A stretch of 64,000 nt of DNA from Chytridium lagenaria (taxonomy: Eukaryota; Chytridiomycota; Chytridiomycetes; Chytridiales; Chytridiaceae): NCBI GenBank assembly GCA_025449115.1, contig JAHLKC010000138.1, positions 1 to 64,000 on the forward strand, written 5' to 3'. Both the position numbers and the translations under genes were made by a program. Positions 2,825 through 58,034 of the stretch are shown piece after piece. The notes under the pieces are model-generated. The model did not search any database. It was not told the origin of the DNA and saw only the letters and a list, made by a program, of their open reading frames with translations. How positions within the stretch are numbered: the stretch's first letter is position 1; every line of letters starts with the position of its first letter.

Positions 2825-2827
2825 CCG

Positions 2828-5800: not shown

Positions 5801-6683
5801 TCACCTCGGACACCTATTGCAGTATCCACCGTGTCATTAATTCTACGGGTATTACCCTCGATCAGACTGCTTATTGCTCTTCTATTCTCAGAGATTTTGC
5901 CCCCGACGATCAAACCATCCGCTCCACTCCATCCCCCCCTTCTCCTACCCATCCTGATTTTGACCCTCCCACTCCCTCGGATATCACTTTTATGCAAAAC
6001 AAACCCTACCGTTCCGTTGTTGCCAAACTCATCTACCTTACCATTATCGCCCTGATATTGCCCCGCCGTCACTCATCTCTCTCGATTCCTTAACCACCCA
6101 CGCCAATGCCACTGGACCCGCATCCTCCATCTTCTTGCTTACCTTCGCGGCACTACCTCCATGGGTCTTCACTACTCCTCCGATCCCATGTATTCTGACC
6201 TCCAACTTACTGCCTATGCCGATGCTGATTACGCTAATAATCCGATCACTCGCCGCTCCGTCTCTGGAACCGTTATTACCTTAGCTGGTGGGGCGGTCGT
6301 TGCTAAATCCCGCTCACAACCAACTCTCGCCACTTCCACCACCGTCGCTGAAATTATCGTCAAACGCCGTCCTCGCGGATGTCATCTGGTTACGCCGCTT
6401 CCTCACTACTCTTGGCCTTTCTCAAGTCGGCCCTACAATCCAGTTTTGCGATAATTTACCGGCTATTGCTGTTTCCAAGGATAATTGCCTCCGTCATCAC
6501 ACCAAACATATCGACATCAAATACATGTTCTACCGCGCCCAAGTTCGTGCTGGTGTTATCGCGGTTACCTATTGTTCCACCGCCCACATGATAGCCGATA
6601 TCCTTACCAAGCCGGTCGCTCGTCCACTTCTCCTTCAACACCGGCCCGCGTTCGGTCTCCATCCTTCTCCTTCCCCTTCCCTA
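2828..6683 (+). pseudogene. pol: copia Pol: protease, integrase, RT, RNase H (frame-disrupted)
   Basis: 2828-4522 is open for 564 codons. It holds the aspartic protease (YLDSGCSSSMT), the GAG-pre-integrase segment with WHGRFLH and CEWC, and the integrase core with D (ISVDIVSV), D (WRMDQGGEQ) and E (NPQIEGWF). A proline-rich spacer follows in shifted frames. The RVT_2 reverse transcriptase starts near 5120 (EALNGPHAELW) and continues at 5422-6050 with IFQYDATAAFIQ and the active site as HVDDQLG in place of the usual YVDD. RNase H follows at about 6195-6350 (YADADYANN...RRSVSG) and, in another frame, at 6380-6640 (HIDIKYMFY, ADILTKP). At least five frame changes or stops break the pol region. 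Confidence 0.85.
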
Positions 6684-9914: not shown

Positions 9915-11720
9915 ACATAAACATCATCATTATACCTTCCCATACTTAGTCTGTCCACTAAATGCTCCAACTTCTGCAGGATCCGCTCTGCCCCTCCCTC
10001 ACTCTTCACCACATCATCCACCTCCATCGCATTCACAATCCGCTTCAGGAACTGAAATCCTATATCTCCCACCTTCTGTTAAAGCTGCACATTCACCGAG
10101 CAAAGCCATATTCAACGTCGATTACAATGCCTCCAACAGCGTCTTGATGCTTTTCGCATGTAACGCCGAATATACTACGCGGTCTTGGGGATCAATAGTA
10201 GAGATTCCGAGAAGGTAGCCTAGCACAAGGATGGAACCGTGGCGGAGCTCGAGGGTGAACTATACAACGATACTATCAAATATATATTCTATATTAACAT
10301 AATGCTCAGAATTCGTTCGTCTAAACGCAAAAAAATCAAGGTTCACCTGCTTACATTGATTCGCAATGGTCGTGTTAAACTATTCAATCAACTTTATAAT
10401 CACATCAAGTCTCACTCCATCCGCATTACTGGTTGCGGCCATTCCCAAAATAGTCCCCATATTACAAACTATATTCTTCGTCCGAAGAGGCGACAAAAAC
10501 GTCTTATATGCAACACCCAACAATATACGCTCTTAAAGACACGACGACGCAATAGAGAGAACGAGCGCATACATCGGATAATTTAGAAGCTAGGTGAACG
10601 AGTGGATGCTTACCTAACTCCTGTTCCTTCAACGCTCATCCACAAGACTCACATAAAGTCCAGTTACTCTGTTTTCAATATTCCCCTTCTCGCGTCCCAA
10701 TACTTCAGCAAAATACGCTTTGAAAGCTTTCCGCCTTATGATATCCGAAAGCTTATTACCATCATGAAGATTAGACGTGATGGATGGCGATATATCCGGA
10801 GTATGTACCGATGGGTGGCCATCACAACATAAAGGCGTCTCGAGAATTCCACAGCAGACGTGTATCCTTCCGCCGTATACGACCCAGCATAGCTTCAAAG
10901 ACTCATAAGGACAAGACGAGGTTTTTCGTATACCTCACTCCAGGCAACCTTAACCCAGGTTCGATTTCTTCCCCATATCACTCAACACCGTCATCGTCTA
11001 CCCAAGATTTGGTAACTTCGTCCGATGCTTTTCAAACGCCATCTCCTCCCTCATCAACCCCATAAACTTGGCAAAAACAAACGCAACAGAGAAGTCCAAT
11101 ACCCGTCGTCCTTCTTCACGCTTTATTGACTTTGGCATCAGCCAACGCGACGATTAGAGCGCGGGAGAACGGGAACAATGCAAGTGCGTAATTGACAGCC
11201 ACGATACGGGTTGAGCTTCAGGTTGACGAGTGTGAGAAAACATTAAAAGGAGTGAATGCCTTATGAATATTGGAAATAACCTCTTCCTCAATCTTGGTCT
11301 TAAGATCATACCTTGTGATGCATCACGGAACGCTTCAACGATGGACGAAAACGCTTCCTGCACAAAAACTATGGCGTTCTTCGATTCCTCTGAGATTGGC
11401 GTTAACAGCCCATTCAGGATCAAAAGATCTGCGACACAGCGTCGAGTGCTAATAGAATTTAAACCTAAAGATAAGATACCTAAATACCTTTTCAGACATC
11501 AGTCCGAAAGCTTGTATGAAACTCCGCGGATGCTCTCTCTTTCTTGCCGCAGTCTCGTCAATGAATATAAGGTCGAGACCGCTCAATATATTTTCAGCGA
11601 CAGGTTTACGTTTTTCGCTTTTCCCCTAAACGAACTTCAGCCTAAAACATAACCATGGCTTCCTCACCATCCTCGCAAACCCATTGCGCAAATTCTTTGT
11701 CTGCAGGGATGTCACCCTCG
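9915..11720 (-). pseudogene. Decayed HEAT-repeat gene, possibly ECM29-like (proteasome adaptor)
   Basis: Minus-strand coding fragments appear in order. They are ILNGLLTPISEESKNAIV (about 11423-11370), an ECM29-reminiscent piece RIVAVNYALALFPF (about 11210-11170), ILGMAATSNADGVRLDV (about 10450-10390), RHGSILVLGYLLGI (about 10240-10190), and the last exon GDIGFQFLKRIVNAMEVDD ending in a stop near 9915. The order HGSILVLG then ALLGECAALTE resembles ECM29, the HEAT-repeat protein that tethers proteasomes. In-frame stops and frame shifts occur in nearly every piece, and the C-terminal half expected of ECM29 is missing. The ECM29 call is from remembered motif similarity only; a generic HEAT protein is possible. 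Confidence 0.35.
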
Positions 11721-17044: not shown

Positions 17045-17846
17045 ATGCTACCATCATTGGACGTTCAAGATTCCCCATTGACGGAGTCCTCGCGCCAGTG
17101 TGACGACCGCTTGTTTGTTTCGGTTGACGTTACGGCAGGCCATTCCACCAATGTCCCAGCACCCTGTTCGCCAGAAACTCTTCCATGGGTAGAACCGCAC
17201 GTGTTGAATGTGCCGACTTCAGGAAGAGTACATTTTTCGTCCTCCGCCACGTTTTCTGAGCCGACAACAATAGCTACAACATCATCTGAGAGGCAACCTT
17301 TCACCATGTCTTTAACTATATCTCGACCCTCTCCAGCCCCACTCCCTCCCGCCTCAATCTCCTTTGGACGATCACGTTGAAACCTCACCTATTGTCGAAT
17401 CACAAGTGAAGAACCCCTCCACCATATCCCCATCACGATCTCGACTAGCAACCCCGTCAGATGATCGCGCTATCCTCATTGTAGATGATTCATCCCTCAA
17501 CCGCAAGATTCTCTATCGCCTCCTCCGTCGCGCAGGCGTGACTCGGCGCATAGAAGAATGCACAAACGGACTTGAGGCCGTCGATAAAGTACGCGCACAG
17601 CCGTCGGGGTTCACGGGTGTGTTCATGGACTTGCAGATGCCTGTGATGGATGGGACGGAGGCTACAAGGGTTATTCGTGATGTTGAAAGAAGGGCGGGTG
17701 GAGGGGAGATGCCGATTGTGGCTGTGACGGCGAGCGTTGTAAAGGAAGAAACTTTGAGAGAAGAGTTTGGGTTTACGGCGGTTGCGCCAAAACCGTTTTT
17801 AAAGGCAGACGCAGAGAGGATTTTGAGGGATTATGAGATGGCTTGA
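17045..17846 (+). CDS. Response-regulator receiver domain, C-terminal part of the hybrid kinase
   Basis: Accepts phosphate from the kinase histidine. The domain starts AILIVDDSSLNRKIL (acidic pair), has the phospho-acceptor in FMDLQMPVMDG (Asp near 17628-17630), the Thr/Ser switch in VAVTASVV and the Lys in APKPFLKAD, so all catalytic positions are present. It ends with TGA 17844-17846. It is preceded by a Ser/Pro-rich linker (17045-17380) in another frame, with a frame change near 17350. Given the 490-nt spacing from the HATPase end and the same strand, it most likely belongs to the same protein; a separate response regulator is the alternative. Confidence 0.75.
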
Positions 17847-19324: not shown

Positions 19325-22300
19325 CTAAGGATCCGAGTATTCTTGGATTTGCTGCCAGTGCTGGTTGATTGCTGCGATTGCCAGATTCGTTGAGCATGTG
19401 CTAGAACACCAGTATGGACGCCTCTGCCAACCACTGTGTTGTCTCTTCTGCTGTGGAGTTGTAGAGTATGTCATGGGTGCGTGTTTGGCCAAGGAGGGAG
19501 GTGCGGATTGTTTCGATTGCCTCGACGACAAGACGGATTTTGGGGATGTAGAGGGAGGTGAATTTAAGGAGGCAATGGCCGTGTCGAGGATGGTAGTGCC
19601 GGGGAGGGGAGGAGGGAGGTTAGGGAAGAGGGGAGTGAGGAGGTTGAGGATATTGGCGCATTGGATGGCGTGTGCACGTGAAACGGTTGTGTCGATAGCG
19701 CATTTGGTGCATATTTGGTGGCATGCGACGGCGCCCAGAAGCCAATGAATAAGAGGACGTTGGTGGTGTCGAGGGAGGAAGGTGGAGGCTGCAATAATAG
19801 GGTGTGGTTTGCCGCGTTTGGGGATAGGTAGAATGCTTCCAGTGCGGCTTGTGGAGGTTTGTTGGAGTTTGGTGAGATCGAGTTGGTGGAAATTATCGAG
19901 CAGGCCTGTGGTAGTGGGGTGGTGATTTTTTGGGGGGGTCCGACGGTGAATGTTCTTGGGGGAATGATGAGGTTGTTGGTGTTGAGCGGGGTGAGGGAGG
20001 GGATGACGGATGGCCAAAGAGGGTTCTTGTGGAGTGATTGGGATATTAGGGAGCGTGGGAGGTTGGGGAGTGTGGCTTGGCTGCGGTAGGTGGTGACGGC
20101 GATGTGGGTGATATCGTTGGATTGGTGAAGTCGGTAATAGAATGATGCGTTGAGGGTGTGGTTGCGGGAGGTCATTGTTGGTATGTTGGCGAGGAGGTGT
20201 ATTGCGGAGGTGCTGGTTTTCGAGGTACTCCGAAGAGACAACGGAGGGCGGTGTTTTGGACTCGTTGGAGGGATTCGAGGGTATGGTGTTGAAGCGGTGC
20301 CAGTGCAATGCCGTATTCCATGATGGGTCGAATAAATGTTTTGTAGATCCTGATTGACATTTGTGGTCTCCATCCCATGCTGTTCATTCCTATGGATTTG
20401 GTCCAGCCTATCATCCTGCGAGCTGCTGCAATGCGTGGGGTGAGGGAGGCGACTAAGTCCACTCCACTTCCCGCCATCATCATGCCGAGGTAGCGTGCCG
20501 AGTCTTTCTGTGTGATGGCATCGGGTCCGAGCTTGAGTTGGGGGTTGATCATCCTGGGTGCAACGGATATAGTTTTTGTCGCGTTGAAACACAATCCTAC
20601 GGAGTGTGCCCACGCGTGACATTCATTAAGGAGGAGTTGAAGGATACGGAGATTGATATGAAATAAAACTATGTCATCGGCAAATAGGAGTGAATTGAGA
20701 CGTGAGTTGTTGAGGAGAACGGATGTGGGTGTATATGGGAAGATAGGGATGGGTAGGGTGCGGAGTCGGGAGGGTAGGGTGTTTATGAAAAAATTAAAAA
20801 GAATAGGCGCAGCTAGGGTACCTTGGATCAGTCCTCTCGACACTGGTATCGGTAATGACTTGTACCCGAGAACTAGTAGATAGGCTAAATTCAAATCAAA
20901 TAGGGCGCGAAGAAGGGGTACAAGAATAAAGTCAGTTTCGGTTTTTTCAAAAAAGGTTCCAAGGAGAAGGGAAAAACGGGACCACAATATTCTTCGGTCT
21001 ACGGTGTCATATGCTGATTTGATATCCAGGTATACGCATGTGAGTTCGGGTTTGTTTATGATTGCTTCGTGAAGGACCATGACTTGTTCTAGGCTTGAGC
21101 GACCGGCTCGAAAACCTCCTTGTGCTTTGTCGAGGGTAGGAACGATTCTTTTGTCGAGAGGGGGTTTGAGTATAGCTTCGAAAGCTTTACGTAGCATGGA
21201 CATGAGGGAGATGGGTCGGTGGTTTGCGATGTCGGTATTGGAGCCTTTATTTTTGTAGATTAGTGCAACGTTTGCATGTAGCCAGGGGGATGGGATGCAG
21301 AGGTAGGATGCGATGATTTTGAAAAGGAGAGTGAGGGTAGGGGTGAGGGTTGCGGCGGCTATGGAGAGCATTTCTCCGTAGACGCCGTCGTCGCCGGCTG
21401 CCTTGCCGGATGGGGCGTGTTGTAGGGCGGATTTGATGGTGTCGGGGGAGATCCAAGGTGGGAGGGAGGCTGGGGGTCGGGGACGGTGGGGGTCTGTGTT
21501 GTGTAGGTATGCATTGTCGAGGGGTTCTGTCCCTGTGGGATCTGCGCCAAAGGTGGTGGCGAAATAATCGGTGTATTCTTCGAGTTTGTTGGGGTCCAGG
21601 GCACACGATGTTCTTTCTTTGCGAGATTTCTTGCATGCGATGATCTTGATGGCGGTGGTGTTGTCTTTCGCAAGATCATCGACTCTCAGTCGAAAGTGTT
21701 TTAGTCCTCGTCGGCGTGCAGCTGTGCGGTATATGCGGTTGGCGGATGTGCATCGGTACCAACAGAATTGGCGGTCTGCGGGTCCAGCGTGGAGCCATGC
21801 AATATGTGCGTCAAGGGCTTTTTGGCGAAGGTCCTTTAGGAAGTCATTCTGGAAGGCCCGAGGAGCGTATGTGCCTGAGTACTTGAGGATACCTCCGGCT
21901 TCTGTTGCTGCTTGAGTGATGGCTTCCGTTACGATGGCATTGACGGTGTCGACTGTGGTTTGGCGGGTGGCGATATCTAGGATGGTTTGTTGGTGGCGTT
22001 GTTCCGTGATGTCGTCTAGGATGGTGGTAAGGGTGGGGATGATGGGTATTAGGAGTGTGGCGAGGGAGTTGGTGAAGGCGTTTGGGTTTTGGCGGAGTTT
22101 TTTGATGTCAATCCGTTGGAATGGAGGTTTGTGAGCGTTGCCTGGTTTTGTAATGGAGAGAGTGAGAAAGCAGTGATCGCTGCCATGTGTTAGTTGTTCA
22201 TGAATGTTAAGTATGGGGTGTAAGGTGAGTGCAGCTGTGTTAGCAAAGACATAATCCGTGATGCTGCTTCCATTTTGGGAGAAGGTAGTCCAGCGACCTA

Positions 22301-22887
22301 CACTCGGTGCTATCAAGTTCCATTCAGGGTCATCCAGCCAGTCAGTCATCCATTGGCGTCGGTGTTGGTTATTGCAAATTTGGTGGTCGTTTGTGTGGTG
22401 TCCCATTCGGGTATTGAAGTCTCCAATGATGATGCATGGTGCATTGGGGTGTTGGGCGGTGATTGTATCGCGGAAGAGGGTGAAGGAGGCCAGGAGGATG
22501 GGGATTTGTTGAGGTGAGTGAGTTAGTGGGGGTAGGTAGGCTGTGATGAGGATGAGGGTTCCGACTTTGATGGCGGTCCATTGGCCGCCATCTGGTGCGG
22601 ATAGGACTTGGGATGCGAGTGGGTGGGATGAGGAGTTAATCGTGAGGACACCTTTCTGGGCGAGTCGGCCACGGTGGAAGTCGGCAGGTGGAGTATGTGT
22701 GGAGTTGGCGATGACATTGGAGAGTGGGGGTGTTTGTGTAGGTAGAAGCCAGGTTTCTACAAGTGTTAGTATATCAATATTTTTTTTGTTTGCAGGTGTC
22801 GGAGAGGTCATCAGCGCGCCCAGAGAGGCCCCTGATGTTCTGAAATCCGAGGGTAAGGGTGTTTTCGTTTGGGTTGTGATTAAACAT
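19325..22887 (-). pseudogene. LINE ORF2: APE endonuclease and reverse transcriptase (three frame breaks)
   Basis: Probable start ATG 22887-22885, giving MFNHNPNENTLTLGFQNIRG. An 8-A run near 22777-22784 breaks the frame, and NIDILTLVETWL continues. APE motifs: VETWL, IIIGDFNTRMG, and C-terminal HGSDHCFLTLSI. Reverse transcriptase motifs: HRPISLMSMLRKAFE, GFRAGRSSLEQV, YLDIKSAYDTVDR, and the active site FADDIVLFH near 20680-20655. The main frame runs 22811-20172 (879 codons) and then changes near 20225 and again near 19750. The last frame carries CHQICTKC...HAIQC, a zinc-knuckle-like end, and stops at 19325. Translation of ORF2 may depend on reinitiation, because its ATG overlaps the ORF1 stop by eight bases. 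Confidence 0.85.
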
Positions 22888-24527
22888 TCGTTTCCATGTT
22901 GTTTTGCGATGAAAGGTTTGGGGGAGTGGGTTGTTGTTGGTGTCGTGGGAGGAAGGAGTTCAGGTTAAAGTTTCTTTGTGGGTACGTGTTAGCGGTGAGG
23001 CCAGCAGTCTCCAGGGCGGCGGTTTGGATGGCGGTGGGAAAATCTTGAAGTACTCCCGCACGTTTGGTAGGGCCAGAGCGTTTAAGGAGGACTGCTAGGC
23101 GGCGGATACAGAATTCTCGAGCGTCAACTTGGAGTGCGGTGATGGTGGCTTCGTTGGCGTCTTGGGTCAGATGTGTAGGGAGTGTGAGGGGGTCAAAGTT
23201 TGGAAGGAGGAGTGTGTGTTTGGTGAGTTGGTCTTCTATGTATTTGCGTTTGTTATCATCGACTAGTAGGTGCACCACGGAGTTGCCAATGAAGCTCATG
23301 TCGATTATTCCAGAGGTAATGTCGAATTTTTTGAGGGCTGATCTAACAAGCTGTGTTCGAACGGGGCGGAGATGCTTGGGGATGTTTGCTTCCATGTAGA
23401 CATTCGATAGGCGCTCAGCCAGTTGTGGGTTGTGGCGGGGTGGGGTAATGATGTGTTTGCTGGCGAGGATACGAGCGGCAGTGGTATTGTTTGCGGTTGC
23501 CTGGTAGATGCTGCGGAGGGCGTCGGCGTAGGAGAGGTCTGCTGGGTTTTTCTCGTCTTGCGGGTTGCTCTGAAATACCTGTGTCTTAGAGTTAGTAGTT
23601 TGGGTCTCCGGGTTCGCGTTTGCGGCTTCCTTTCCTTTGATGGAGGGTTTGATTGTGGTGAGTGTTTCTTTGAGCACATTCTGAATGAGGGTAGTAATGG
23701 ATTCCTTCCAGGAATCAGGGAGGTTGCGATTGTCCAGTGCAGTGTGGTCGTTGTTGACCTTGTCGATGGTGAGTCGCTCCTTGATCTGCTCCAGTTCCGT
23801 CTTTTGTTCGTCGTATTTTGGACTAAGGCTTCGTTCATTTTCTGTAGTTCATTTACCTGATGGGTGAGTGCTAGGATGGTCTGGTTGAGAGTGGCAAGAG
23901 TTGTGTCCATGGTTTCTTCGTCTCTAGGGGTAGGTGTGGGTTGGATGGAGGGGTTGGTGTGTTGTGGATTCGGTGATGATGGGGATAGTGATGTTGATGG
24001 TTGGAGATGTTTGTCTGTTGGTGTTCTAAAGAATGGATGGATGGGTTTGGAGGATGAGGAGGTAGGTAGTCGTTGTTGTGGTTGGGGAGTAGTGAAGGGA
24101 TTGGTGGTTGATGTTGGTTGGGTGAGTCTGGGTGGGGTGATAGCGCTGGTAATCCGATCGGATGGGTTGAGGGTGGGAGATTAGTGTGTGCGTCGGCGAT
24201 GGTCTTGATGAACTCGGCGACGTTTGGTAGGGAGGAGTTGTGGTCAAGGACGATCTGGAGGCAGGTCTTTTCTGAACAGTTGGAGCAAAGGAGGACGTGG
24301 TATTGTACCCCACGGACGTTGTGGATGCCAGCTCTACCTCGGGAGGACCAGATGGGGGGAACTTTATCACACTTAGGGCAGTGGATCGATTTCTTGTCGA
24401 GTTTTTTCCAGAGGGTAAGGCGTAGGTTATAGAAGTCAAGGACAGGTTTTGATGTCAGCTGTCTCGTTTTGCGAGGTGCAGGAGGGGATGGATCAGGGTG
24501 TGCTCTCTTCCTTGTGTCCGAACTCAC
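22880..24527 (-). pseudogene. LINE ORF1 protein (frame-disrupted)
   Basis: RNA-binding or chaperone-like partner of ORF2. The first segment (24527-23871) has a cysteine-rich unit IHCPKCDKVPPIW with a downstream CSNCSEKTC, then a long His/Pro-rich stretch. The frame changes near 23900 to a segment with a heptad-like helix (LNQTILALTHQVNELQKMNE), and again near 23690. The last part (23677-22880) reads LSYADALRSIYQATANNT and LVRSALKKFDITSGIID, a basic folded domain. The stop TAA at 22882-22880 overlaps the start of ORF2. Confidence 0.7.
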
Positions 24528-34767: not shown

Positions 34768-37700
34768 TCACAAAAGATGAATGCCCGCACCCAAAAAAGA
34801 GACACAGACCCAAGTTGATGCATACACTTCATAAAGATGGACTCCACTGGTGAACAATCACGAAATAATATAAGCGGCATAAATCAAAGCCGAACAGAAA
34901 ACATGAAAAAACTTTACGAGAATCGGTTCCCCGAGAGGCTCCTATGTTTCAAAAAAATCGGGTTAGGAGGGGAAAGCGGTTCGAAACAAAGACGGAGAGG
35001 AACCCACAGATTCGGAATTCTCTTAATCTCTTTAGTCACAGTTCCCGTAAGCTGATTGTTTTTCAGCGTTCTATCATGCATGCATCAGCGTTTCTCTTTA
35101 CACGCAACAACAAGAGAGGACACTTACAAGACTTGAAGATGTGGCATCCGTCCAAGTCCTTCCGGTAATGGTCCCTCCAGGGCATTATTGTTAAGCACCC
35201 TACAAACCCCGCATATTAGAACAAAGGCAAGACCGAAAGGATACCCTACAATTGAGATAATCTCGTCAACGACACCAATGAGCTCGGTATCTCCCCGGAA
35301 AGCTTATTCCCACTAAGCACAAGAAACTCCAACTCGGTGATCTTCCCAATCGTTTCAGGTATGCATCCAGTAAGTTGGTTATCACTCAGATTTCTAATAA
35401 TGAAAAACATTAGGTTGCTTGTATGATATGCCGAAATAATAGGGAAAGTTACTCAACAGATACGCTAGCCAACAGAGGTTTCCGATTTCAGGTGGTATTA
35501 CGCCTACAACGGGATTTTGGGGTAAGTTATGTGGAACGCGAAAAGGTGACGCTTATACCTGAGAGTTTGTTGTTTTCGATCGAACTAAAGTATGGGGGTT
35601 TGTTGAATTAGAAAAATTAAAAAGAACGAGGAGTAGCATACAGATATTGCAACGTTGTAGCGCTTCCAATGGTTGACGGTAAAGTTCCCTCCAACGCATT
35701 CCCATCAAGACATCTACGGGAGAGGGGTAAAAAAAAAATTATTAGCAAAGCGATACATGAAACGCTTATACATACAGGTACTGCAAGTTTGCGAGTTTCT
35801 CTAACGATTTTGGTACAGGTCCTCCAATTTTGTTACTCGAAAGATTACTACGCAAAGTAAAAAAAAGATGAGTGACATAGCATGAGAAGGAAGATTGTGG
35901 CTACGTACAACGTCTTTAAAAACTTCAAGTTCCCAATCTCCTCTGGTAACACACCGGTCAATTGATTCTCCTCTAGTCTTAAAACCTCCAACGACTCCAT
36001 ATCTGCAATCTCAATGGGAATGTCTCCGGAAAGTGTTGGAATTGAGACGTCTATAAAACCATTTAGTGTGAATTTCGAAAAGCTGGGCCGGGAATGAGAG
36101 TTTGCATTGGTAGGGGGGAGAAAGGACGAGGACGTACAGTTCAACCAGTTTTGTAAAACATGAAAAGTCGGGAGGAATAGGACCTGTGAGCTTGTTGTCA
36201 CTCAGCTTCCTAAGAAATGGGTTCGTTAGAAGTTAAAGAGTAAACTATAAGCTTACAGGAAGACAAGCTCCGTTAACCGTGACAGTTCTGGGGAATCGCG
36301 CCTTTTAATTTTCTTGGAAAGGTCCCTATCTCACATGCATCAGAAAAAAATGCGGAAAGGGGGGCTGCATAACTCACAGATACGTTAGATACTTAAATTT
36401 TGAAATAGATTTCGGGATTTTATCAAACGGTCTCTCCTCATACATGATTCTACGTAACTCCATCAACATCTACATACGAGTTTATCAAACTTACAGTTCC
36501 GCTATTCTGCCCTCCTGATTCAAGTTGACACATCCAACTTCGATATCCGTGCTATCAAACACGTCGACACGGGTTTTTGGGGTCCTGCGGTGGTGTAGTT
36601 GTCGATGGTGACGCTGAATTTCTCGCACCAGGTTTTAAAGGAGGAGAGGAGATGCTTGACGTCTGTGATCAATAGGAAGATGGAGTTAATTGGTGTGATA
36701 CTGTGGGGAGACTGACCTTTGCCACGTACACCTAATTGTGTAAATCATAGAAAAAGGTAATAATATGTTATTGAGGAAGAGTTAAATGAAAATAAAAGGT
36801 ATTATTCGATGCAAAAAATAATCAAACCATTAGAGGTCTTCGATGTATGTGTAGAAGCAATCGATTTCCGATCCTCTCTTTCCAACTTACGATCCTCTAC
36901 CTCCACTTTATTCTTTGCTGCCGTTGAAATCTCACCCCCGTCCGCATTATCCTCCATCTCCCGCTCACTCTTCGTCACCATCGACTTTCCATCCGCATCG
37001 TCATTCTCAACCACCTCATTTTTCCCCATAATCATCGTCCCATCTGCGTCATCTTTTTCCTCTCCCTCAGTCGTTAACACTATTGACCTCCCTTCCGTGT
37101 TATCCTTTTCCTCCTCGTCATTCTTCGCGATATCGTCATTCTTCGCGATATTCAACTTCGCTTTGCATCATCCTTTTCCTCCAACCTCACTTCTGCGTTA
37201 TCCTTTTCCTCCTCGTCAGTCTTCACGATATTCGGCTTTGGATCTACATCATCCTTTTCCTCCAACCTCACTTCCGCGTCATCCTTTTCCTCCTCGTCAG
37301 TCTTCACGATATTCGACTTCGCATCTATATCATCCTTTTCCTCCATCTCATGCTTGGTCACAAGCAAATTCCCTTCCGCATCATCATTTTCCTTAACCTC
37401 GCTCTTCCTCACAATTGACATCTCATCAACATCATCCTTTTCTTCCACCTCACTTTTTGTCACAAGTGTCTTACTCTGCGCATCGTCAGTATCCCCTCCC
37501 TCACAGTTCTCCAATAGCAAATTTTTGTTCCCCTCATCATCATCCATACCCCCTTCACAACTCCGTCCAATTTCATCCATCTTCTCCTTCAACTCTGGCA
37601 CCTCCTCCGAAATCCTACTTCTCAATTGTTCATTCACCTCAATCAGCTCCTCATCAATAAACGCTTCAGCATCTCCTTCGCCGCCTCCCGATCCTTCACA

Positions 37701-39304
37701 ATAGGATCTAATAAAAGCGTCACCGCCTTCTCCGCATCCACAGCCGTCCCAAACCCTGTAGCATAACACGACGCAAGCTTGACGTAAGCGGACGGCTCGC
37801 TTTTCTCCGCCGCTTTCGAGTAACACTCAAATGCCGCCTCGGCATTCACAGCGGTTCCTATACCGTTCTCATAACACGTCCCAATATTGGTCACAGCAAG
37901 AGAATTTCCATTATCCGCTGATCGTCGATAAAGTCTGAACGCCATATCATCATCCTTCTCGACCCCGACGCCCTTTTCATAACAAAACCCAAGCGTGTTT
38001 AACGCAGAAACGTCTCCGCGCACCGATGAGCTCGTGTAAAGTTCCACGGCTTTACATGGATCCTGCTCAACCCCTATCCCCCTAAGGTAGCAATCACCTA
38101 AAAGGTTTTGGGCTTTGGGGTTTTGAATGTCAGCGGATTTTTCTATCAGCTTGATGGCTTGGCTGACGTCTTTTTCGGCGCCGTGACCGTGGAGAAGCGA
38201 GATTCCAACATTCAACTCTGCGATAGGGTCACCATGTGCAACGCCTTTTTGGAATATATTGAACGCTTGCTCTGGGTCTTTCTCAACTCCAATTCCGTTT
38301 TTAAAGCATCGACCGAGGTTGTTAAACGCCTTGGGGTTTCCAGCATCCACCGACATTTTGTAAAACCTATGTGCCTGAACCAAATCCTGTGTGGTTCCAA
38401 TTCCCTTCTCATAGCAAAACGCCAAATTATTCATGGCGCCATAATCACCGAGCTCTGCTGCGCGTTTGTAGAGTTCAAATGCGGCGACGCCGTCCTTTGA
38501 AACCCCAAACCCCTTTTCAACACAATATCCATAACACGTCATTGCTTTCGGTATGTTTTTCTCGCAGCCCAATTTAAGTCCAGCGATGATCTTCTTCATG
38601 TCCTTTCCAGCAGGTCCAAAAGAAGCCAAAAACGCCGAATACTCATAAGCGTTCAACTTAGATTCCTCTTCGCTTGGTTTCTGCTCAACCGCGTTACTCT
38701 TGGCGTCACTTGAATCACCTGGTTCCTCTGATTCTGGTTCCGTTTCAGCCTTCGATTCTTCCGCTGACGCCTTTGCCGCCACCTCTGCCGCTACCTCGGC
38801 TTCGGCTATCTTTGATCGAACTTGACGTATTAGCCCCTTCATCCTTGCCTGCCAAACTGGCCCCGTGAACTTGGTGATGTCCGCCATGTCAATGTAAAGA
38901 GATCCCGCGGTGATCAACCTTGACCAAGTGAGAGGGCCTTTATCAAGGCGTATAGGGATTAATGGTTTCTTTTCTTCATCGGCAAAGTTGAGTTCCTTTT
39001 TACAATTATGTGAAGCCTACGTGATCAGGGTTTGATGCGATATCAGCGGGAGTTACCTCGTATTTCACAGAAAGGCATGGAACGATGACGGTGGAACCCA
39101 TCACACCACTGAACATGGCGTCATTGATGTTACCGTCCATCTTGTCAAGATCCATCCAGACTGCGAGACCAGCTGCTTCGAGAGAATCTTTGATCGCTAT
39201 GCCATCTCCTGGTGACCCCATCTACGTTCCGAATGTTAAATGACAGCCCAGAAATGTCGAACTCACTGGTAGCTGATCATAACATCGCTCTTGTCGTCCG
39301 CCAT
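34768..39304 (-). CDS. TIR - Sel1-repeat - acidic-repeat - LRR protein (NLR-like architecture)
   Basis: Predicted intracellular receptor-like protein of about 1,175 residues. About 17 exons are joined by eye: 39304-39267, 39221-39057, 39016-36828, 36731-36717, 36662-36495, then a run of LRR exons from 36449 to 34918 and a last exon 34846-34768. The TIR starts MADDKSDVMISYQ, has GLAVWMDLDKMDG and TVIVPCLSVKYE, and carries a Glu in NCKKELNFA (38995-38993) where TIR NADases have theirs. About eight Sel1 repeats (for example AMNNLAFCYEKGIG) cover roughly 38510-37700. An acidic repeat (EEKDDAD words) follows to 36860. An N-cap (GCVNLNQEGRIAEL) and about thirteen LRRs of the LxxNxLxGxIP type follow. 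Frame breaks occur at about 39217, 37690, 37160, 36578 and 36030. Exon phases agree only if these are single-base errors: exons 1 and 2 sum to 203 nt, one short of the multiple of three that exon 3 needs. No NB-ARC or NACHT ATPase was seen. Confidence 0.75.
37130..37350. repeat. In-gene 90-bp tandem repeat encoding acidic segment
   Basis: Words such as ATCATCCTTTTCCTCCAACC and CTCCTCGTCAGTCTTCACG recur at about 90-bp spacing within the TIR-Sel1-LRR gene. They encode EEKDDAEVRLEEKDD and NIVKTDEEEKDD. More diverged copies extend from about 36940 to 37470. Confidence 0.75.
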
Positions 39305-42411: not shown

Positions 42412-45400
42412 TCAGTTTAAGGCCGAGAAGAAACGAGCTTCCAATTGCTCGTGCGTTGTCTGAGAGTCAAATCTCTTCTCAGACACGTTTTTTTCTGAGT
42501 AAAGTGACGGGTTACTGAGGAATTCATCCTCAACCTCCACGTCCTGATCTCTTTGAAGGCGATCTAAATATGAGGTCCGTGCCATAGCAAGCTTGACGGA
42601 TTCTGGAACTTCGGGTATCAACCACTGAAGGATGGCGGTAATGAAATACACGGCATAATGAAATGCTATGATGAATCCGACTCTTGCCGCCATCCTCGCA
42701 CCAACAGACGGGAGCCAAGCAAGGAAGCTACCATAAAAAGCTGCAGAGGTAAACGCAATCTGAACGGAATTGGTAGCGACAGACATCCGTGCCGTAAACC
42801 TCAAGATAGCCTCCCAAGATCCAATATCCTGTGCCCTTGACGGCAAAGGTCTTTGATGCATAATAAGGACCTTGTACGCGTCTGCACGAAGCTCGTAGCA
42901 ATTATTTAGAAGAGCAAACAACGGTGCTAGAGGATTGATGCTGACGAACATGGCGACGTATCCAAATTGGACAATTTTCTGAGCGTATTCATCACGAACC
43001 CCTCTATACTCGGGAAGTTTGTCGTCCCGATAGTACTGCGGGAGACGTGTGTTTTCGCCCCCAGTATCTGCAGTACCGTTAACATCCGTCGGTCCTGCCA
43101 CCACATCCACTACCATCGCGGCCATATCTTTGAAACTCGTACCGAAGAGAAACGCACTATTACTATTGTCCTTCACTTTGGTCACACTTCTTTGATAGGC
43201 AGAAGGTCTTCCAGAAACAACAGCATCATCTAAAGTATCGATGGATAGAGCCAAAACGGTGGCCTTTTCCGACACTTTCGGTTTGCCTTCGTCTTCTGTG
43301 ATATCCATCGGTGCTACTCTTTTCCTCTGCCGCTCTTCTAATCGCCTGCTGCGACGTTTGATAGATGCCTTTATTGCAAGAAACCTCGCTATTATCCATG
43401 GGAGGCATAGTTCCTGAAACCGATCCACAACTGGAAACAGTAAAATAAGTTTATCAATCACTTTCAAAACGGCTACCTTGCCCCCCAATAAACAGCACAA
43501 AAAGGTTGATGGTAAATCCACTCGCACAGGTGGAGCCGTTCTCCGTTTGCGGTTGTAACGAGCAGCTATCATTTAAAAAGCGCAAACCAAAAAGATCCTG
43601 ACTCAGGAAAGCTGGTTTGACGATTGAGTAGTAAACAGGCTGAGCGATGTTACTGCAAATTCCGGATTCAACCATTACCTGGGAGTAGCTGTTTGCAAAA
43701 TCAAAGATGTACGTTTTTAAAATAAAAGAGTCATCATAGGTGGTGTCGGTGGGACTTGAATATGGTCAATTCATATAAACAAGAATCTAAGTCTCCTTAC
43801 TAGTTTTCCCATGCGTTTAACCATCGAACGGCGATGCTAAAAGGGACCTGCATGATGAAAATTGAAGCGAGGCCTAATCCAAGCAAAAAGTGTACGTTAA
43901 GAGAAGGAGAACAAAAAAAGAGTTGCCAACCTAGAAATGAAGTGAAACAGGCAATCCAGATATCGTTATTCACGGAAGGAGACACGTACGCTCCAAGTGA
44001 TATTTGAAAGGAGATGAATACTGCCATAACTGCCACCCATATTGCTATCACTAGACACGACACAATCTGACGACCACGTCTCTTAATCGCCGGAAAGTAA
44101 AGCTCATTTCGACCAGTAACCTCACTTCGTCTATGTGATTTTCGATGCGTTAAAGACATTCGTGGTTGCGAGAACTTACTTAGTCATTGTAGCTTTAAAT
44201 TCGGGTCTCTTGGACTCCTCCTTTTCAAAATCGTACGTAGACCACTTCCAAGTCAGGTAGTTTGCTTGCCGGTTCCAAACCGAAGGCATAAGCATAGCCC
44301 AGAGAGAATTGAAAACCCCATACCAAGGAGTGAGAGAGTTATCAAAAGAACAGCCCAACGAAAAGTAGTTCCGCTTAAAACATCAGTATGCACTTTCGGG
44401 ATAAAATTCCAACCTGCTCGCTTCACCTAATCCATAAAAACACACGAGAAGTCCGACGGCCACGGCCGAGACCAACCACAGGTTGTAGAACCCATTAAAA
44501 GCGAAATAGAGCGCAACCTTTTCGCCAAAATACGAGGATATCTGGTCTAGAGGCTGATAGGCGAAATAGCGAAGAGCCCATTCACGCTTCAGGAATAAAC
44601 GCAGGTTTTCCGGGCAATTAGGATCCTCCAAATCATCGTGAAGGTGGAACATGGCTGTGTAGATACCTTCAGAGAGGAGATATCGAACACCTGTGAAGGT
44701 GTTATTTGAAGAATTAGAATCCTTATGCTATACCTTCCCTGTGAGATTTACTCAAAAATCCTTTAATGGGTATTTCAACACTAGTGATCATGCGATATAT
44801 CTGTATAACCCGAACAAAATTATTGAGTGCTAATTTAAGAATCAGAGGATTAGACTTACCAAAAGAGATCTATGGCTGTCCCTAAAAAAGTGCGCCTGGA
44901 CATAGCGTGGACTGTAATCATTTAAATCTCCTCCCTCAAAGTTGCTAAGTCGGTTTCGATTAAATATTGCTGACTGTTGGTCTAGCCGTAAGTCGTCTTC
45001 GAACACAGGCTTGATGAGCGACCATAGGTGGCGAAATATCGAAGGTTTATTTCCTACTGATGGCATTGACTGGATTTTTCCTTTTGAATTCGATTTTATA
45101 TGCCTGAAAACTTTAGCAAAATGTAAACTGTTTCATCAAACCTCATCCACTTTCAGCGGTAACTTCAGTTTCATGACCTGAGCCTCTGTACATAATACAT
45201 GGAAAGGACAGAGAATCTTGACAAAAACTTCAGAAGCATCCTCGACTGAAGTTTCCCTTTCCACAAGAAGTCCTTCTTTAAGAGTTTGGCTTCAAATGTA
45301 GCTCGGTGAAGGTCGTTAGCTCCATCAGCTGTCGATTTAAATTTTAAGATGTAGTCATAGCGTCTCACTCCGTAAACAATTTGGATAATACCATCCATAG

Positions 45401-46459: not shown

Positions 46460-49399
46460 ATGGAAGACGATGAAGAGGCTCACTTGCAGCTGGTGAGTGA
46501 AATCGTTATGCGGGTCGGCTCTAACCTATGCGGGCTTAAAGCAAAGCCATGCAATATCGAGTGGCCTGCTCCATGCGATTCGCCTCCTTCTCGAAGATGA
46601 GCGGAAGAGTATCAACTACACTACACATCCTTGGTGACTGAAATTCAGTTTAATCTTCTGGACAGCTTCAATCTATCCTTTAATCGCCTTTCGATGGGGA
46701 ACACCGGATATATGCATACATCGACTGCAGCTTATGATGCCTGGAAAAAACCTGCCTTCGTGTCGATATGTGAATTCTACGGGAGGAAGGCAGAAGGTAT
46801 TTTAGTCTTTCCAATTAATTATAACTTTTCTGATCCTGTAAAGATGTTGAGCTCTTTGGCAGCAACTTCACTTTATTAATTGCATTGGATTCTTTGAGAG
46901 GAATGATTCGGAAATTGATATCAGAAAAGCCGGAGAGCCAGAGTGAAAACCACCTCGATGGAATTTTATCGTCAACACTTTCCGATGTAATTAATGCTGC
47001 CATGACCCAAATTGCTGCTTCGAAGCGAGAGCTTAGATATGATGCCCGGCTGCGCAATCTTTTGAGAAAGATCTTGCAGAACTGCCTGCCGCTGCTGGAG
47101 CTACCATCATCCAAAGACTCGAGCCAGCCTCAGTCTTTGAAGAGCATGAGCCTTATATTGCACAATGTGGAGGCTGCTGTTGCTGCCCAATTGCTTTCGC
47201 AGGTTGCGGCTGAAGAAACTGTTGATGATGGCAGCTCTGCTGGAAGGGCAAGCGCCGCGTTGGCCGAAGCAGATACGAAGGCAAAAGGAGACTTTGATGC
47301 GCAAGTAAAGAAGTGGATGGCCATTGGGCTAGCTACCGTTGGTGGTGGAGTGGTAGTTGGGGTAACAGGTGGACTCGCCGCGCCACTGATAGGTGCAGGA
47401 ATGGGTAGTCTTTTGGCCGGTATGTGTGTTCACTTTTTGGTGTTTTTCTTACATAGTTAGGACTCGGGATAACTGGAACTGCGACGATGGTAGGATTACT
47501 CGGATCATCGGCAGGGGCTGCAGTCATCGGAACGCTTTTCGGACTCACAGGAGGCGGTGTTGCGGGTAGATCTCCGTTACCTGTTTGAAGCTAAGCATGT
47601 TCGTAGCCTACACGTTTAAAAAGCGATTGGGCGGTTTAGAGGAGTGTTATTTCAAGACAATAGCACCACAGGAATCCTCCATGCATGCAATTATTTGCAT
47701 ATCTGGTTGGTTAGATACCTTAGATGATGCCACAGAACCTTGGCAAGCCATCCCGGCGTTTGCTCCTTTTTCGGAAGTGTAAGCGCCTTTTTTTTTTTCT
47801 TGCTTTATGCTGAAATTCTACCACAGTGATGCCATGGTTTTTGATCCCCAACATCTTATTACTCTCGGAACAGCGATAAGGGACTTTCTTGGTTCAACAG
47901 CTGCGTCGTATGCTGCAACTGAGGTTTTAAAACACACAATCTTAGGTGGACTGGTCTGGGCATTAGTATGGCCCGTTGGACTTCTTCAACTGTCTTATCT
48001 AATTGATAACCCATGGAGTATTGGTTTGGATAGATCACGAAAGGCGGGGAACTTTTAGCCAAAGAAATTATTTTACCTCAAGTGCAAGGAAAAAGACCTG
48101 TAACACTTGTTGGATGGGGTCTTGGTGCTAGAACCATATTTTACGCACTCTTGGAAATTGCCAGTGCGGGTGATGGTGGGAATTATAATGCATACGGGTA
48201 ATTTGAATTAACCTTTTCCACTTCAGTGCCTTTCTTTGTTGATTATTTCTGTTTCCACACTATGATTGCTTTGCTTTAACTTCTTTACAAAAACTCCTTT
48301 TTTTCAAATTCTTGAAAGATTGATAGACTCAGTGTATCTTTTTGGTGCGCCTGTCGAAGGAAATCCAGAGCTTTGGACTAGGGCCGCAAGCGTGGTATCG
48401 GGACGCTTTGTTAATGGGTACTCTGGCAAAGATTGGTTTCTCTACTTTCTCTATCGTGCAGGCTCTCCTAATGACACTGTGGCGGGTCTTCATCCCATGA
48501 TGACTCTAGCCGATATCCAAGCCGCAGGAGGCTCGCAAAAGTTACCGGATTATAAAAGCCAAGATACTTGGGCCAAATCACGAATCGAAAATTTTGAGTT
48601 ATCAAGCATCGTCTCAAGCCACGCAAAGTACAAAGAGGCACTTCAAGACATTTTAGACTTTGTGGGATTCGAGCGTTTACCTCAAACTGAAGAACAACGC
48701 TCGGCTCCGACTTTGGGGTCACGTACGGGATCTCTTCAGAGCTTGACAGATGTTAATCCTGAAGAAAAGCGCAAACAAATTCTTCAGTTTATGCCACGAA
48801 AAAGCTCGCTTGCGCATGCTGCCCCTTCTCCATCCACCTCACAGACACCGACCCCCACATTGTCATCGTCAATGGATAAACCGCGTCAACGCATGAGCAG
48901 TCGCACCTTCGATAGGCAGGATTTTCGTGACAAAATACTTTTGGAAAGTACATCCAACGTCTCAGCGAAACCCCCACCTATTCATGTTCACGTCCCACCC
49001 CCTACTCCTGTATCCGTCGACACACTGTTTGATTCCGACATTGAATCAGGCGAGAAGCTGGACGGCGACCTGGGAACGGACATTGGGAACGTAGATATTA
49101 TTGATATTTACGGTTCTGGCTTTTCTAGCGATACCGGAAAAATCATGGATGTGCGCGGTCAGAATTTGATGACTCCCCATATGCATGGGCGGAGGAGCTC
49201 CCCTATTGAGGCTGTTTTTGAGCCAAATGCTCTTGCTATCGACCCGCTATCTCGTGGGACCTCGAGCGTATCATTGGGTGAAGATGAAATGGACAGAAGG
49301 GAGGGCAATTCATGGGTTGGCACTGATATTGATGATCGAGTTTATCGAGGTCCAGTAGCTGAAGTGGTTGGAACCCCATATTCAGCCAAACCGCGATAG
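46460..49399 (+). CDS. DUF726 (TMCO4/YFD4-like) membrane-associated hydrolase-fold protein
   Basis: The start MEDDEEAHLQL is followed at once by a GTGAGT donor. Main coding pieces: 46885-47410 (helical region, then a glycine-rich pair of helices WMAIGLATVGGGVVVGV and GLAAPLIGAGMGSLLA), 47585-47780 (MHAIICISGWLDTLDDA) and 47827-48060 (LGTAIRDFLGSTAASYAA, SYLIDNPWSIGLDRSRKAG). Then RPVTLVGWGLGARTIFYALL carries a GxGxG nucleophile-elbow-like site in which Gly replaces Ser, and 48300-49399 has YLFGAPVEGNPELW and VVSGRFVNGYSGKDW. These are the hallmarks of PF05277. The tail from about 48780 is Ser/Pro-rich. A G-run at 48046-48049 is one base short of the expected frame. Function in fungi is poorly known. 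Confidence 0.8.
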
Positions 49400-56538: not shown

Positions 56539-58034
56539 TTACTTTCCCAAAAACTTGAACCCATACTCTGTCTTCTGCTTCCACACCTTCCCACTCCCCA
56601 AAACAACAAGCGCCCTCACAGCTCCATCCTTGCTGTTCACCGCATCCGGTGGCGCAGAAGCTTCAAGACAAACCCCAGAATAAGGTCCATACTTGCACCT
56701 AAAAAAACAAACCCATCAATTCAAAACCCCCATAAAAAAATTCACCACCGAAAAAAAGGGACCTACTCTTGTGTGGACTTTGGTCCCAAACTCCCATCCA
56801 ACCAATTCCCCGTATAAAGCTGAAAGCCCATCGCGCTCGTCCTCAACTTCATCTCAAGTCCAGAGTCAGGTGAAACTAGAGTTGCAGCATCCACCATCAC
56901 CACATCCTCGTCTTCCCCAACAACGCATTTCGCGTCACCCGCATTCTTGACAACAAAAAAGTGGTCATAGCCTTTAAACTCCATGACGCTTTCAAGGTCT
57001 TGATTGAAGGGTTTCGGGGATGAGAAATCGAGGGTGGGGTTGTCGTTATAGCGCCTGTGGGGATTTGGGTTGCGGTGAGAGGCATGTGTGGAGCGGGTGT
57101 TTGGAAAGTATGGGAAAGGATGGATGGGTTTGTGAACCCTGAAAGGTTAAAGTAGGAATGGGTCGTGAGATTCACAATGGTTTCATCTGTGGTGGGTGTA
57201 GGTATTTTCGCGGTGTAATCGATGAGGAGGGATGAATCTGTGAGGGTGTAGGTGATGGTGACAAGGAGGTCGCAGGGGTAGGATTCTTGGTTTGCGGGGG
57301 AGAGGAGGGAGAGGGAGATGTGGGAGGATGAGGAAGAGAGGATGGACCAGGTTTTCTTGTCAAAACCTTGGAGGCCGCCGTGAAGGGAGTTGGGGCCGTT
57401 GTTGATGGGAAGGGTGTAAGTTTTAGAGTTGAGAGTGAAGGTACCGTTGGCTATGCTATCATTTATGGGTCGTTAGATACATGAAGAATGTAAATGTAAT
57501 AGTTCCTGCACACAGAATGTATGGAGCCGGTCTCGCGGATATATAAATGCAGTAGGCCCGACCTAACAAAGAGCAGTCTGCTCACAACCCATCCAAATAC
57601 TCTCACTTGTCGCCTACGGCAAGGCTACTTTCTCTCTTCTACGGAGCCCGCTTCACTCGAATGCCCAAACTCATCTGCCGGCGCATGCTTCGCTCACCGC
57701 CCACGTCCTCAACTCCTCATCAACCAACTCACCGATTACACACCCTCCCAATAGTTCCATAATAAGGATTCGCGCCTTTATCACTCTCCAACTGCTGCTC
57801 CAACGTATCAAACCCTTGAACAACATCCAACACTTTTCCCGAGACGGGGTCTTTGACGAGGAGATGGGAGATGGTTGCACCGTGAGGTCTGATGGTGCAT
57901 TGGATGGAGGTGGAGGGGGAGGTGAGGGTGACGTCTTGAGTCGCGTTGGTCATTGCTGGCGAGGTGTTGGGAGTGAGGGTGATGACTGAGTGAAGAGGAA
58001 ATGTGAAGGTTTTTGAGAGAGTTGTCACAGTCAT
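56539..58034 (-). CDS. Aldose 1-epimerase (galactose mutarotase family)
   Basis: Interconverts alpha and beta anomers of aldohexoses, cytosolic, Leloir-type sugar metabolism. Exon 1, 58034-57733: PNTSPAMTNATQDVTLTSPS, then RPHGATISHLLVKD, then YYGTIGRVCNR. Exon 2, 57455 to about 56770: IANGTFTLNS, NNGPNSLHGG (sugar-binding His), then THSYFNLSG with the catalytic His, YDHFFVV, and AMGFQLYTGNWLDG. Exon 3, 56698-56539: YSGVCLEASAPPDAVN, where the Glu is the likely catalytic base, ending in WKQKTEYGFKFLGK. One base appears lost near 57040-57050 (TGAI against expected GRYNDNP). Intron 1 is long (277 nt) for this window. Total about 395 residues; the N-terminal 30 residues precede the usual family start. 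Confidence 0.85.

What the first reader, a model, noticed from the sequence alone, without database searches (positions are those of the whole stretch)
34768..39304. TIR - Sel1 - acidic repeat - LRR protein: an NLR-like receptor architecture in a fungus
Joining exons by splice sites gives one protein with a TIR at the N-terminus, about eight Sel1 repeats in place of an ATPase, a charged tandem linker, and about thirteen plant-type LRRs. TIR plus solenoid sensors plus LRR recalls plant TNLs and animal or bacterial TIR effectors, yet I know of no described fungal family with this exact order, and there is no NB-ARC or NACHT. It could be a self/non-self or pathogen-sensing receptor. The domain identities and order are read from sequence; the function is inference.
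Basis: partly seen in the sequence, partly recalled or inferred. Interest (0 to 1): 0.92.

Follow-up and report, generated by a model that had tools for sequence, protein, structure and literature searches.

The report
Chytrid TIR–Sel1 gene with LRR tail
A water fungus seems to carry an immune-receptor-like gene that joins a TIR enzyme domain to two kinds of protein-binding repeats without the usual ATPase switch; the first half is well supported, but the link to the leucine-rich half still needs an RNA test.

Summary
On the minus strand of a Chytridium lagenaria contig lie, in order, a TIR domain, eight Sel1 repeats, an acidic tract of about 258 residues and about thirteen plant-type LRRs. 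Pfam on the read-through gives TIR_2 60.8, Sel1 194.5 and LRR_14 99.5 bits, all above cut-off. Splicing alone does not give one protein: five frame breaks must also be bridged. CCT-beta, an essential gene of the same assembly, has two breaks, so sequence error is a likely cause; decay is not excluded. Two paralogues on C36 share 52-56% identity through TIR, Sel1 and past the window's Sel1 stop, so TIR-Sel1-acidic is one protein. Their tails differ (helical modules; giant tandem repeats); only the window copy leads into LRRs. That join rests on a perfect in-phase donor, a missing LRR start codon and a short gap; there is no transcript. The TIR keeps the catalytic glutamate and is close to the TIR of a chytrid TIR-NACHT-WD40 protein (57%). 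Best reading: an NTPase-free, NLR-like sensor with exchangeable tails. It fails the defining NTPase test of NLRs.

The parts
39267..39304 (-). exon 1, TIR start (MADDKSDVMISYQ)
   Evidence: same start pattern and intron place in both C36 paralogues
39057..39221 (-). exon 2, TIR core; frame break near its start
   Evidence: TIR_2 25.1 bits alone, 67% and 55% identity to two C36 loci
38807..39016 (-). exon 3, first part: TIR C-terminal part with the catalytic-type Glu (NCKKEL); end approximate
37697..38557 (-). exon 3, middle: eight Sel1 repeats (limits approximate)
   Evidence: Pfam Sel1 206.5 bits; C36 paralogue 56% identical
37643..37700 (-). frame break at the end of Sel1; in-frame TGA at 37643-37645
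   Evidence: paralogues align on beyond it
36891..37668 (-). exon 3, last part: acidic tract with a second frame break near 37160; 81-bp tandem repeat at 37133-37345
36732..36890 (-). proposed intron (GTAAGT...TTAG) joining the acidic tract to the LRR part
36717..36731 (-). exon 4, 15-nt microexon; may be skipped (acceptor 36662 is also in phase)
36495..36662 (-). exon 5, LRR N-terminal cap, with a frame break near 36580
34914..36449 (-). exons 6-17, about thirteen LRRs, with a frame break near 36030 (E9)

Best explanation
One gene of about 1130 codons encodes a soluble TIR-Sel1-acidic-LRR protein, a member of a small C. lagenaria family with a constant TIR-Sel1 core and different C-terminal repeat tails. 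Shown: the domains, the shared core and intron place, the kept catalytic-type Glu, and the continuity of Sel1 with the acidic part. Inferred: the LRR tail is spliced onto the same transcript; the frame breaks are mainly sequence errors; the Sel1 and LRR solenoids bind a ligand or partner; clustering through them brings TIRs together and starts NAD+ cleavage, leading to cell death or a nucleotide signal, without an ATPase switch; the acidic tract is a flexible spacer.
For: Pfam on the read-through. Two paralogues on C36, 52% and 56% identical to the window stretch compared, aligning on past the window's Sel1 stop, with the first intron at the same place in all three and the second in the window and paralogue 1. 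Catalytic-type Glu invariant in 5 of 5 TIRs and aligned with the SARM1 KDWVHKEI Glu (that this is SARM1 E642 is recalled). The same TIR subtype heads TIR-NACHT-WD40 (57% over 92%) and TIR-NB-ARC (38% over 90%) proteins. LRR join: a GTAAGT donor in phase with the LRR acceptors; of 176 ORFs of 90 aa or more in the window, 6 have GTAAGT in the last 120 nt and 3 in this phase; of ATG-led frames that could splice in phase to the LRR exons from within 400 nt, only the acidic frame has a perfect donor. CCT-beta has two frame breaks in this assembly.
Against: No transcript. No orthologue with the same order: of the 120 listed of 610 hits only P0052 has TIR, Sel1 and LRR, with an NB-ARC and another order. 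Neither paralogue has an LRR tail, and next to paralogue 2 an LRR gene seems to be a separate gene. Five frame breaks in about 3.4 kb is dense; I checked only one housekeeping gene at DNA level. No near-identical public protein model of 622-1979 aa or 336-1071 aa was among the listed rows. No structure model could be made (ten attempts, machine busy).
Confidence: 0.5

Rival explanations
1. Two neighbouring genes: TIR-Sel1-acidic, and a separate LRR gene with its own start.
For: Many LRR loci in this genome (63 matches to the LRR query); an LRR gene with a transmembrane segment follows paralogue 2 on the same strand as what looks like a separate gene (by eye); with one more frame break an ATG near 36747 could be a start (sequence). 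Two other-frame ATG leads into the LRR exons exist, of 17 and 11 residues, with weaker donors (4 and 3 of 6 matches).
Against: No ATG in the LRR cap frame between the upstream TGA and the cap; perfect in-phase donor in the acidic frame; only 159 nt, or about 70 nt from the acidic stop, for terminator, promoter and leader.
Confidence: 0.25
2. A decaying copy: the family works, but this member is a pseudogene and the five frame breaks are real.
For: Five breaks in about 3.4 kb; the window falls below the TIR_2 cut-off exon by exon.
Against: CCT-beta, essential and expected to be intact, has two breaks too; other loci of this assembly read in several frames as well (P0121 locus, C35); all 16 intron borders are kept and no stop lies inside the joined frame.
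Confidence: 0.15
3. An intact protein with a non-immune role: the TIR works as a scaffold or in metabolism, with Sel1 and LRR as plain assembly surfaces.
For: Sel1 and LRR are general binding repeats; bacterial-type Sel1 models also match; a conserved Glu does not prove enzyme activity (PMC7075850, passage).
Against: The closest relatives of this TIR outside the species are TIR-NACHT and TIR-NB-ARC proteins; different repeat tails on one core.
Confidence: 0.1

Closest known systems
C. lagenaria TIR-Sel1 proteins P0001 (BC829DRAFT_181199) and P0121 (BC829DRAFT_416679)
   Same: TIR then Sel1, same first-intron place, 52% and 56% identity
   Different: no LRR; followed by helical modules or giant tandem repeats
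Chytrid TIR-NACHT-WD40 protein P0122 (Nowakowskiella sp. JEL0078)
   Same: same TIR subtype, 57% identity over 92% of the P0001 TIR region; effector in front, repeats behind
   Different: NACHT-type NTPase (Pfam NPHP3_N) and WD40 in place of Sel1 and LRR
Plant TNL receptors (TIR-NB-ARC-LRR)
   Same: N-terminal TIR with the catalytic-type Glu, plant-type LRRs at the end
   Different: no NB-ARC; Sel1 and an acidic tract between; fungal
Metagenome protein P0052 (TIR-NB-ARC-LRR-Sel1, 1612 aa)
   Same: TIR, LRR and Sel1 in one protein
   Different: has NB-ARC; Sel1 after the LRRs; 36% identity over 28% of the query
SARM1
   Same: closest TIR of solved structure by profile, E about 1e-4, catalytic-type Glu aligned; also without NTPase
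   Different: ARM and SAM domains with the TIR last (recalled)

Membership tests
NLR / STAND receptor | central NB-ARC or NACHT NTPase | tested here: not met
   no NTPase family among the Pfam hits of the 1131-aa read-through at E up to 0.01
NLR / STAND receptor | N-terminal effector domain | tested here: met
   TIR_2 at residues 8-113, 60.8 bits against 28
NLR / STAND receptor | C-terminal superstructure-forming repeats in the same protein | tested here: inconclusive
   LRRs are present; that they share the transcript is inferred
TIR NADase | TIR domain family | tested here: met
   Pfam TIR_2; profile hits SARM1 and Cat1 chains at E about 1e-4
TIR NADase | catalytic glutamate | tested here: met
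   E76 invariant in 5 of 5 sequences, aligned with the SARM1 KDWVHKEI Glu; its identity as E642 is recalled
TIR NADase | NAD+ cleavage | not testable with these tools
   needs an enzyme assay
C. lagenaria TIR-Sel1 family | TIR followed by Sel1 repeats, with a shared intron place in the TIR | tested here: met

The most novel reading that the evidence does not exclude
C. lagenaria has a family of NTPase-free TIR-Sel1 sensors whose C-terminal repeat tail is exchanged between copies, and one copy has taken a plant-type LRR tail: a fungal TIR-LRR receptor, NLR-like in design but without an ATPase.
Probability: 0.5. Interest if true: 0.75.

Novelty: new variant of a known kind. Interest (0 to 1): 0.55.

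Why it matters
[quoted passage not shown] A fungal TIR-LRR protein without an NTPase would show that TIR plus LRR was combined in fungi too, and that a solenoid can stand where NLRs keep their ATPase. It makes one question directly testable: can binding through Sel1 or LRR alone switch on a TIR?

Tried and rejected
Searching for the same order elsewhere: the read-through protein gave 610 hits among 7999 scored candidates; in the 120 listed none has TIR, Sel1 and LRR without NB-ARC. The TIR (P0001, residues 1-145) gave 4 hits among 243 candidates, two of them the C. lagenaria paralogues. The LRR part gave 7810 hits; the 120 listed are plant receptor-like proteins and metagenome or bacterial LRR proteins, none named C. 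lagenaria. Of the contigs hit by both the Sel1 and the LRR search (C138, C35, C72, C90, C7, both lower bounds), only C35 besides the window has both close together on one strand: a Sel1 gene, Ser/Asp-rich exons, then an LRR cap. Sel1 could not be linked to the linker there with good splice sites, so it stays a lead.

I first took all five frame breaks to be one-base-short (note). On rechecking the frames, four are; the one in E9 is not. I first considered the GNIND stretch as the catalytic position and dropped it after the profile alignment. A missing signal peptide as an argument against a separate LRR gene was dropped, since another LRR locus (L050) seems to lack one too (by eye). NB-ARC gave no match in this genome; NACHT gave 2 matches, one over the cut-off; these searches run exon by exon and can miss split genes. 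PADLOC gave P0001 one weak TIR match (SAVED5, 18.6 bits) and NCBIfam only matches below cut-off.

Papers: the searches (listings, some capped) showed no fungal TIR-Sel1-LRR by title or abstract start. I read only passages of PMC4986451, PMC9815663, PMC7075850, PMC12931631, PMC7145615, PMC7159879, PMC10197012, PMC12881547 and PMC12258605.

Full report
What is there. The feature lies on the minus strand. Manual exon tracing gives 17 exons from 39304 to 34914 with 16 GT-AG introns of 40-159 nt. On single pieces Pfam gives Sel1 206.5 bits for the 457-aa ORF and TIR_2 25.1 bits for the exon-2 ORF, under its cut-off of 28; a TIR_2 search of the whole genome listed three C36 places and not the window. 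On the read-through of 1131 residues TIR_2 reaches 60.8, Sel1 194.5, LRR_14 99.5 and LRR_8 90.4 bits, and no NTPase family appears at E up to 0.01. By eye there are 8 Sel1 repeats and 13 LRRs. The acidic tract has 34% D+E and net charge -53 over 258 positions and holds an 81-bp tandem repeat.

Where it comes from. The best protein hit, P0001, is an annotated Chytridium lagenaria protein on a contig of 292505 bases, the length of contig C36 of the window's own assembly. The genome held has 41.9 Mb in 356 contigs; the window is on C138. C. lagenaria is a chytrid of the order Chytridiales.

Frame breaks. Besides introns the frame changes at five places: the start of E2, the end of Sel1, the acidic tract, E5 and E9. 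Four are of the one-base-short kind; the one in E9 is not explained by a single missing base. Two facts bear on the cause. First, CCT-beta on contig C9 changes frame twice with no intron, within conserved motifs; bridged with XX, both stretches align without interruption with solved CCT-beta chains. So this assembly carries such breaks in an essential gene. Second, in the acidic tract the broken unit is one base shorter than two sister units (counted on the sequence). Against an innocent reading stands the density, five in about 3.4 kb; I checked one housekeeping gene at DNA level and did not measure a genome-wide rate.

TIR-Sel1-acidic is one protein. The Sel1 ORF has 37 matches in the own genome including itself; the best outside the window is on C36 at 56% identity. 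The exon-2 ORF matches itself and two C36 loci, at 67% and 55%. The annotated paralogues P0001 (894 aa) and P0121 (527 aa) begin MEPRTDVMISYQW and MTGKTDVMISYQW. The intron after ISYQ sits at the same place in all three copies, and the second intron matches in the window and paralogue 1. The alignment of the window with both paralogues runs on past the window's Sel1 stop, so that TGA is a frame break and not the gene's end.

The LRR join. The acidic frame holds a GTAAGT donor at 36890, in phase with acceptors at 36731 and 36662 (and 36716). GTAAGT occurs 36 times on both strands of the window; of 176 stop-to-stop ORFs of 90 aa or more, 6 have it in the last 120 nt and 3 in this phase (the acidic ORF itself can be among them). 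A scan of donors within 400 nt, ATG-led by 8 or more residues, found perfect donors only in the acidic frame; two other-frame leads, of 17 and 11 residues, have donors matching 4 and 3 of 6 positions. The gap is 159 nt, or about 70 nt from the acidic stop. This favours one gene but rests on sequence alone; one more frame break could open a separate start near 36.75 kb. Next to paralogue 2 an LRR gene with a transmembrane segment lies on the same strand and looks separate, which speaks for the two-gene rival.

The family. The two paralogues have the same TIR-Sel1 core and other tails. Paralogue 1 runs into a long series of SVRGSVVADKPAEHG-like repeats spread over three frames. Paralogue 2 is followed by repeated helical modules; one module has 3 matches in the genome, itself included, all on C36. 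A constant N-terminal core with different repeat tails is what one expects of a sensor family; this is inference.

The TIR. With P0001 residues 1-145 as query, 4 of 243 candidates pass E 0.001: P0001, P0121, P0122 (Nowakowskiella sp. JEL0078, 57% over 92%) and P0123 (38% over 90%). Pfam shows TIR_2, NPHP3_N (a NACHT-type domain, recalled) and WD40 in P0122, and TIR_2 and NB-ARC in P0123. In the alignment of five TIRs the Glu of NCKKEL is invariant. A profile of them hits SARM1 and Cat1 chains at E about 1e-4 and aligns that Glu with SARM1 KDWVHKEI. That this is the catalytic E642 is recalled; PMC7075850 states that the conserved Glu is frequent in groups with reported NADase activity but does not necessarily go with activity (passage).

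Context in print. PMC4986451 found no LRR in fungal NLRs and PMC12881547 repeats it. PMC9815663 says TIR was reported in NLRs of Chytridiomycota. [quoted passage not shown] PMC12258605 found as few as one NLR in some Chytridiomycota. PMC7145615 describes algal NLR-like genes joined to Sel1-like repeats with LRR motifs, and PMC12931631 a bacterial defence protein whose C-terminal sensor region includes a Sel1 motif. So each pairing has a parallel. The order TIR-Sel1-LRR without NTPase in a fungus did not turn up in my protein searches (120 of 610 hits seen) or paper searches. In this genome NB-ARC gave no match and NACHT two, one over its cut-off.

Verdict. TIR-Sel1-acidic: well supported. Fusion to LRR: more likely than not, about 0.7 by my judgement. 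A working gene rather than a decayed copy: likely but open. Function as an NTPase-free, NAD+-cleaving sensor: plausible, untested. Overall confidence in the full reading 0.5.

Noticed in passing
L027 and L028 (C36:173000-192800): Paralogue 1 runs into very long SVRGSVVADKPAEHG-type tandem repeats spread over three frames; paralogue 2 is followed by repeats of a helical module of roughly 95 residues (3 genome matches including itself, all on C36).
   Followed up: partly
L021 (C72:90886-94029): A further TIR of this subtype behind an N-terminal stretch without Pfam match and before coiled-coil-like sequence, an order that recalls SARM1.
   Followed up: partly
L029 (C36:101582-102459, minus): A TIR-like ORF of a different type (VFISYR), 227 aa, best match of the TIR_2 genome search.
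   Followed up: no
L008, L056, L063 (C35:15252-21777, minus): A Sel1 gene followed on the same strand by Ser/Asp-rich exons and LRRs: a possible second Sel1-linker-LRR gene, not linked by good splice sites.
   Followed up: partly
L042 (C9:313800-316600): CCT-beta with two frame breaks in conserved motifs: the assembly has base-level breaks in an essential gene.
   Followed up: yes
P0052 (metagenome protein, 1612 aa): TIR-NB-ARC-LRR-Sel1 in one protein.
   Followed up: no
L075 (C128, NACHT match at 10537-10923): A NACHT-containing ORF, the only NACHT match over the cut-off in the genome.
   Followed up: no
window 2825-6090 (+) and 20175-22964 (-): Retroelement ORFs: integrase-type and RVT_2 pieces, and a 930-aa ORF with endonuclease and RVT_1.
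   Followed up: no
window 42415-43572 (-), 48266-49396 (+), 56900-57472 (-), 17316-17843 (+): Pfam matches to anoctamin, DUF726, aldose 1-epimerase and response-regulator receiver.
   Followed up: no
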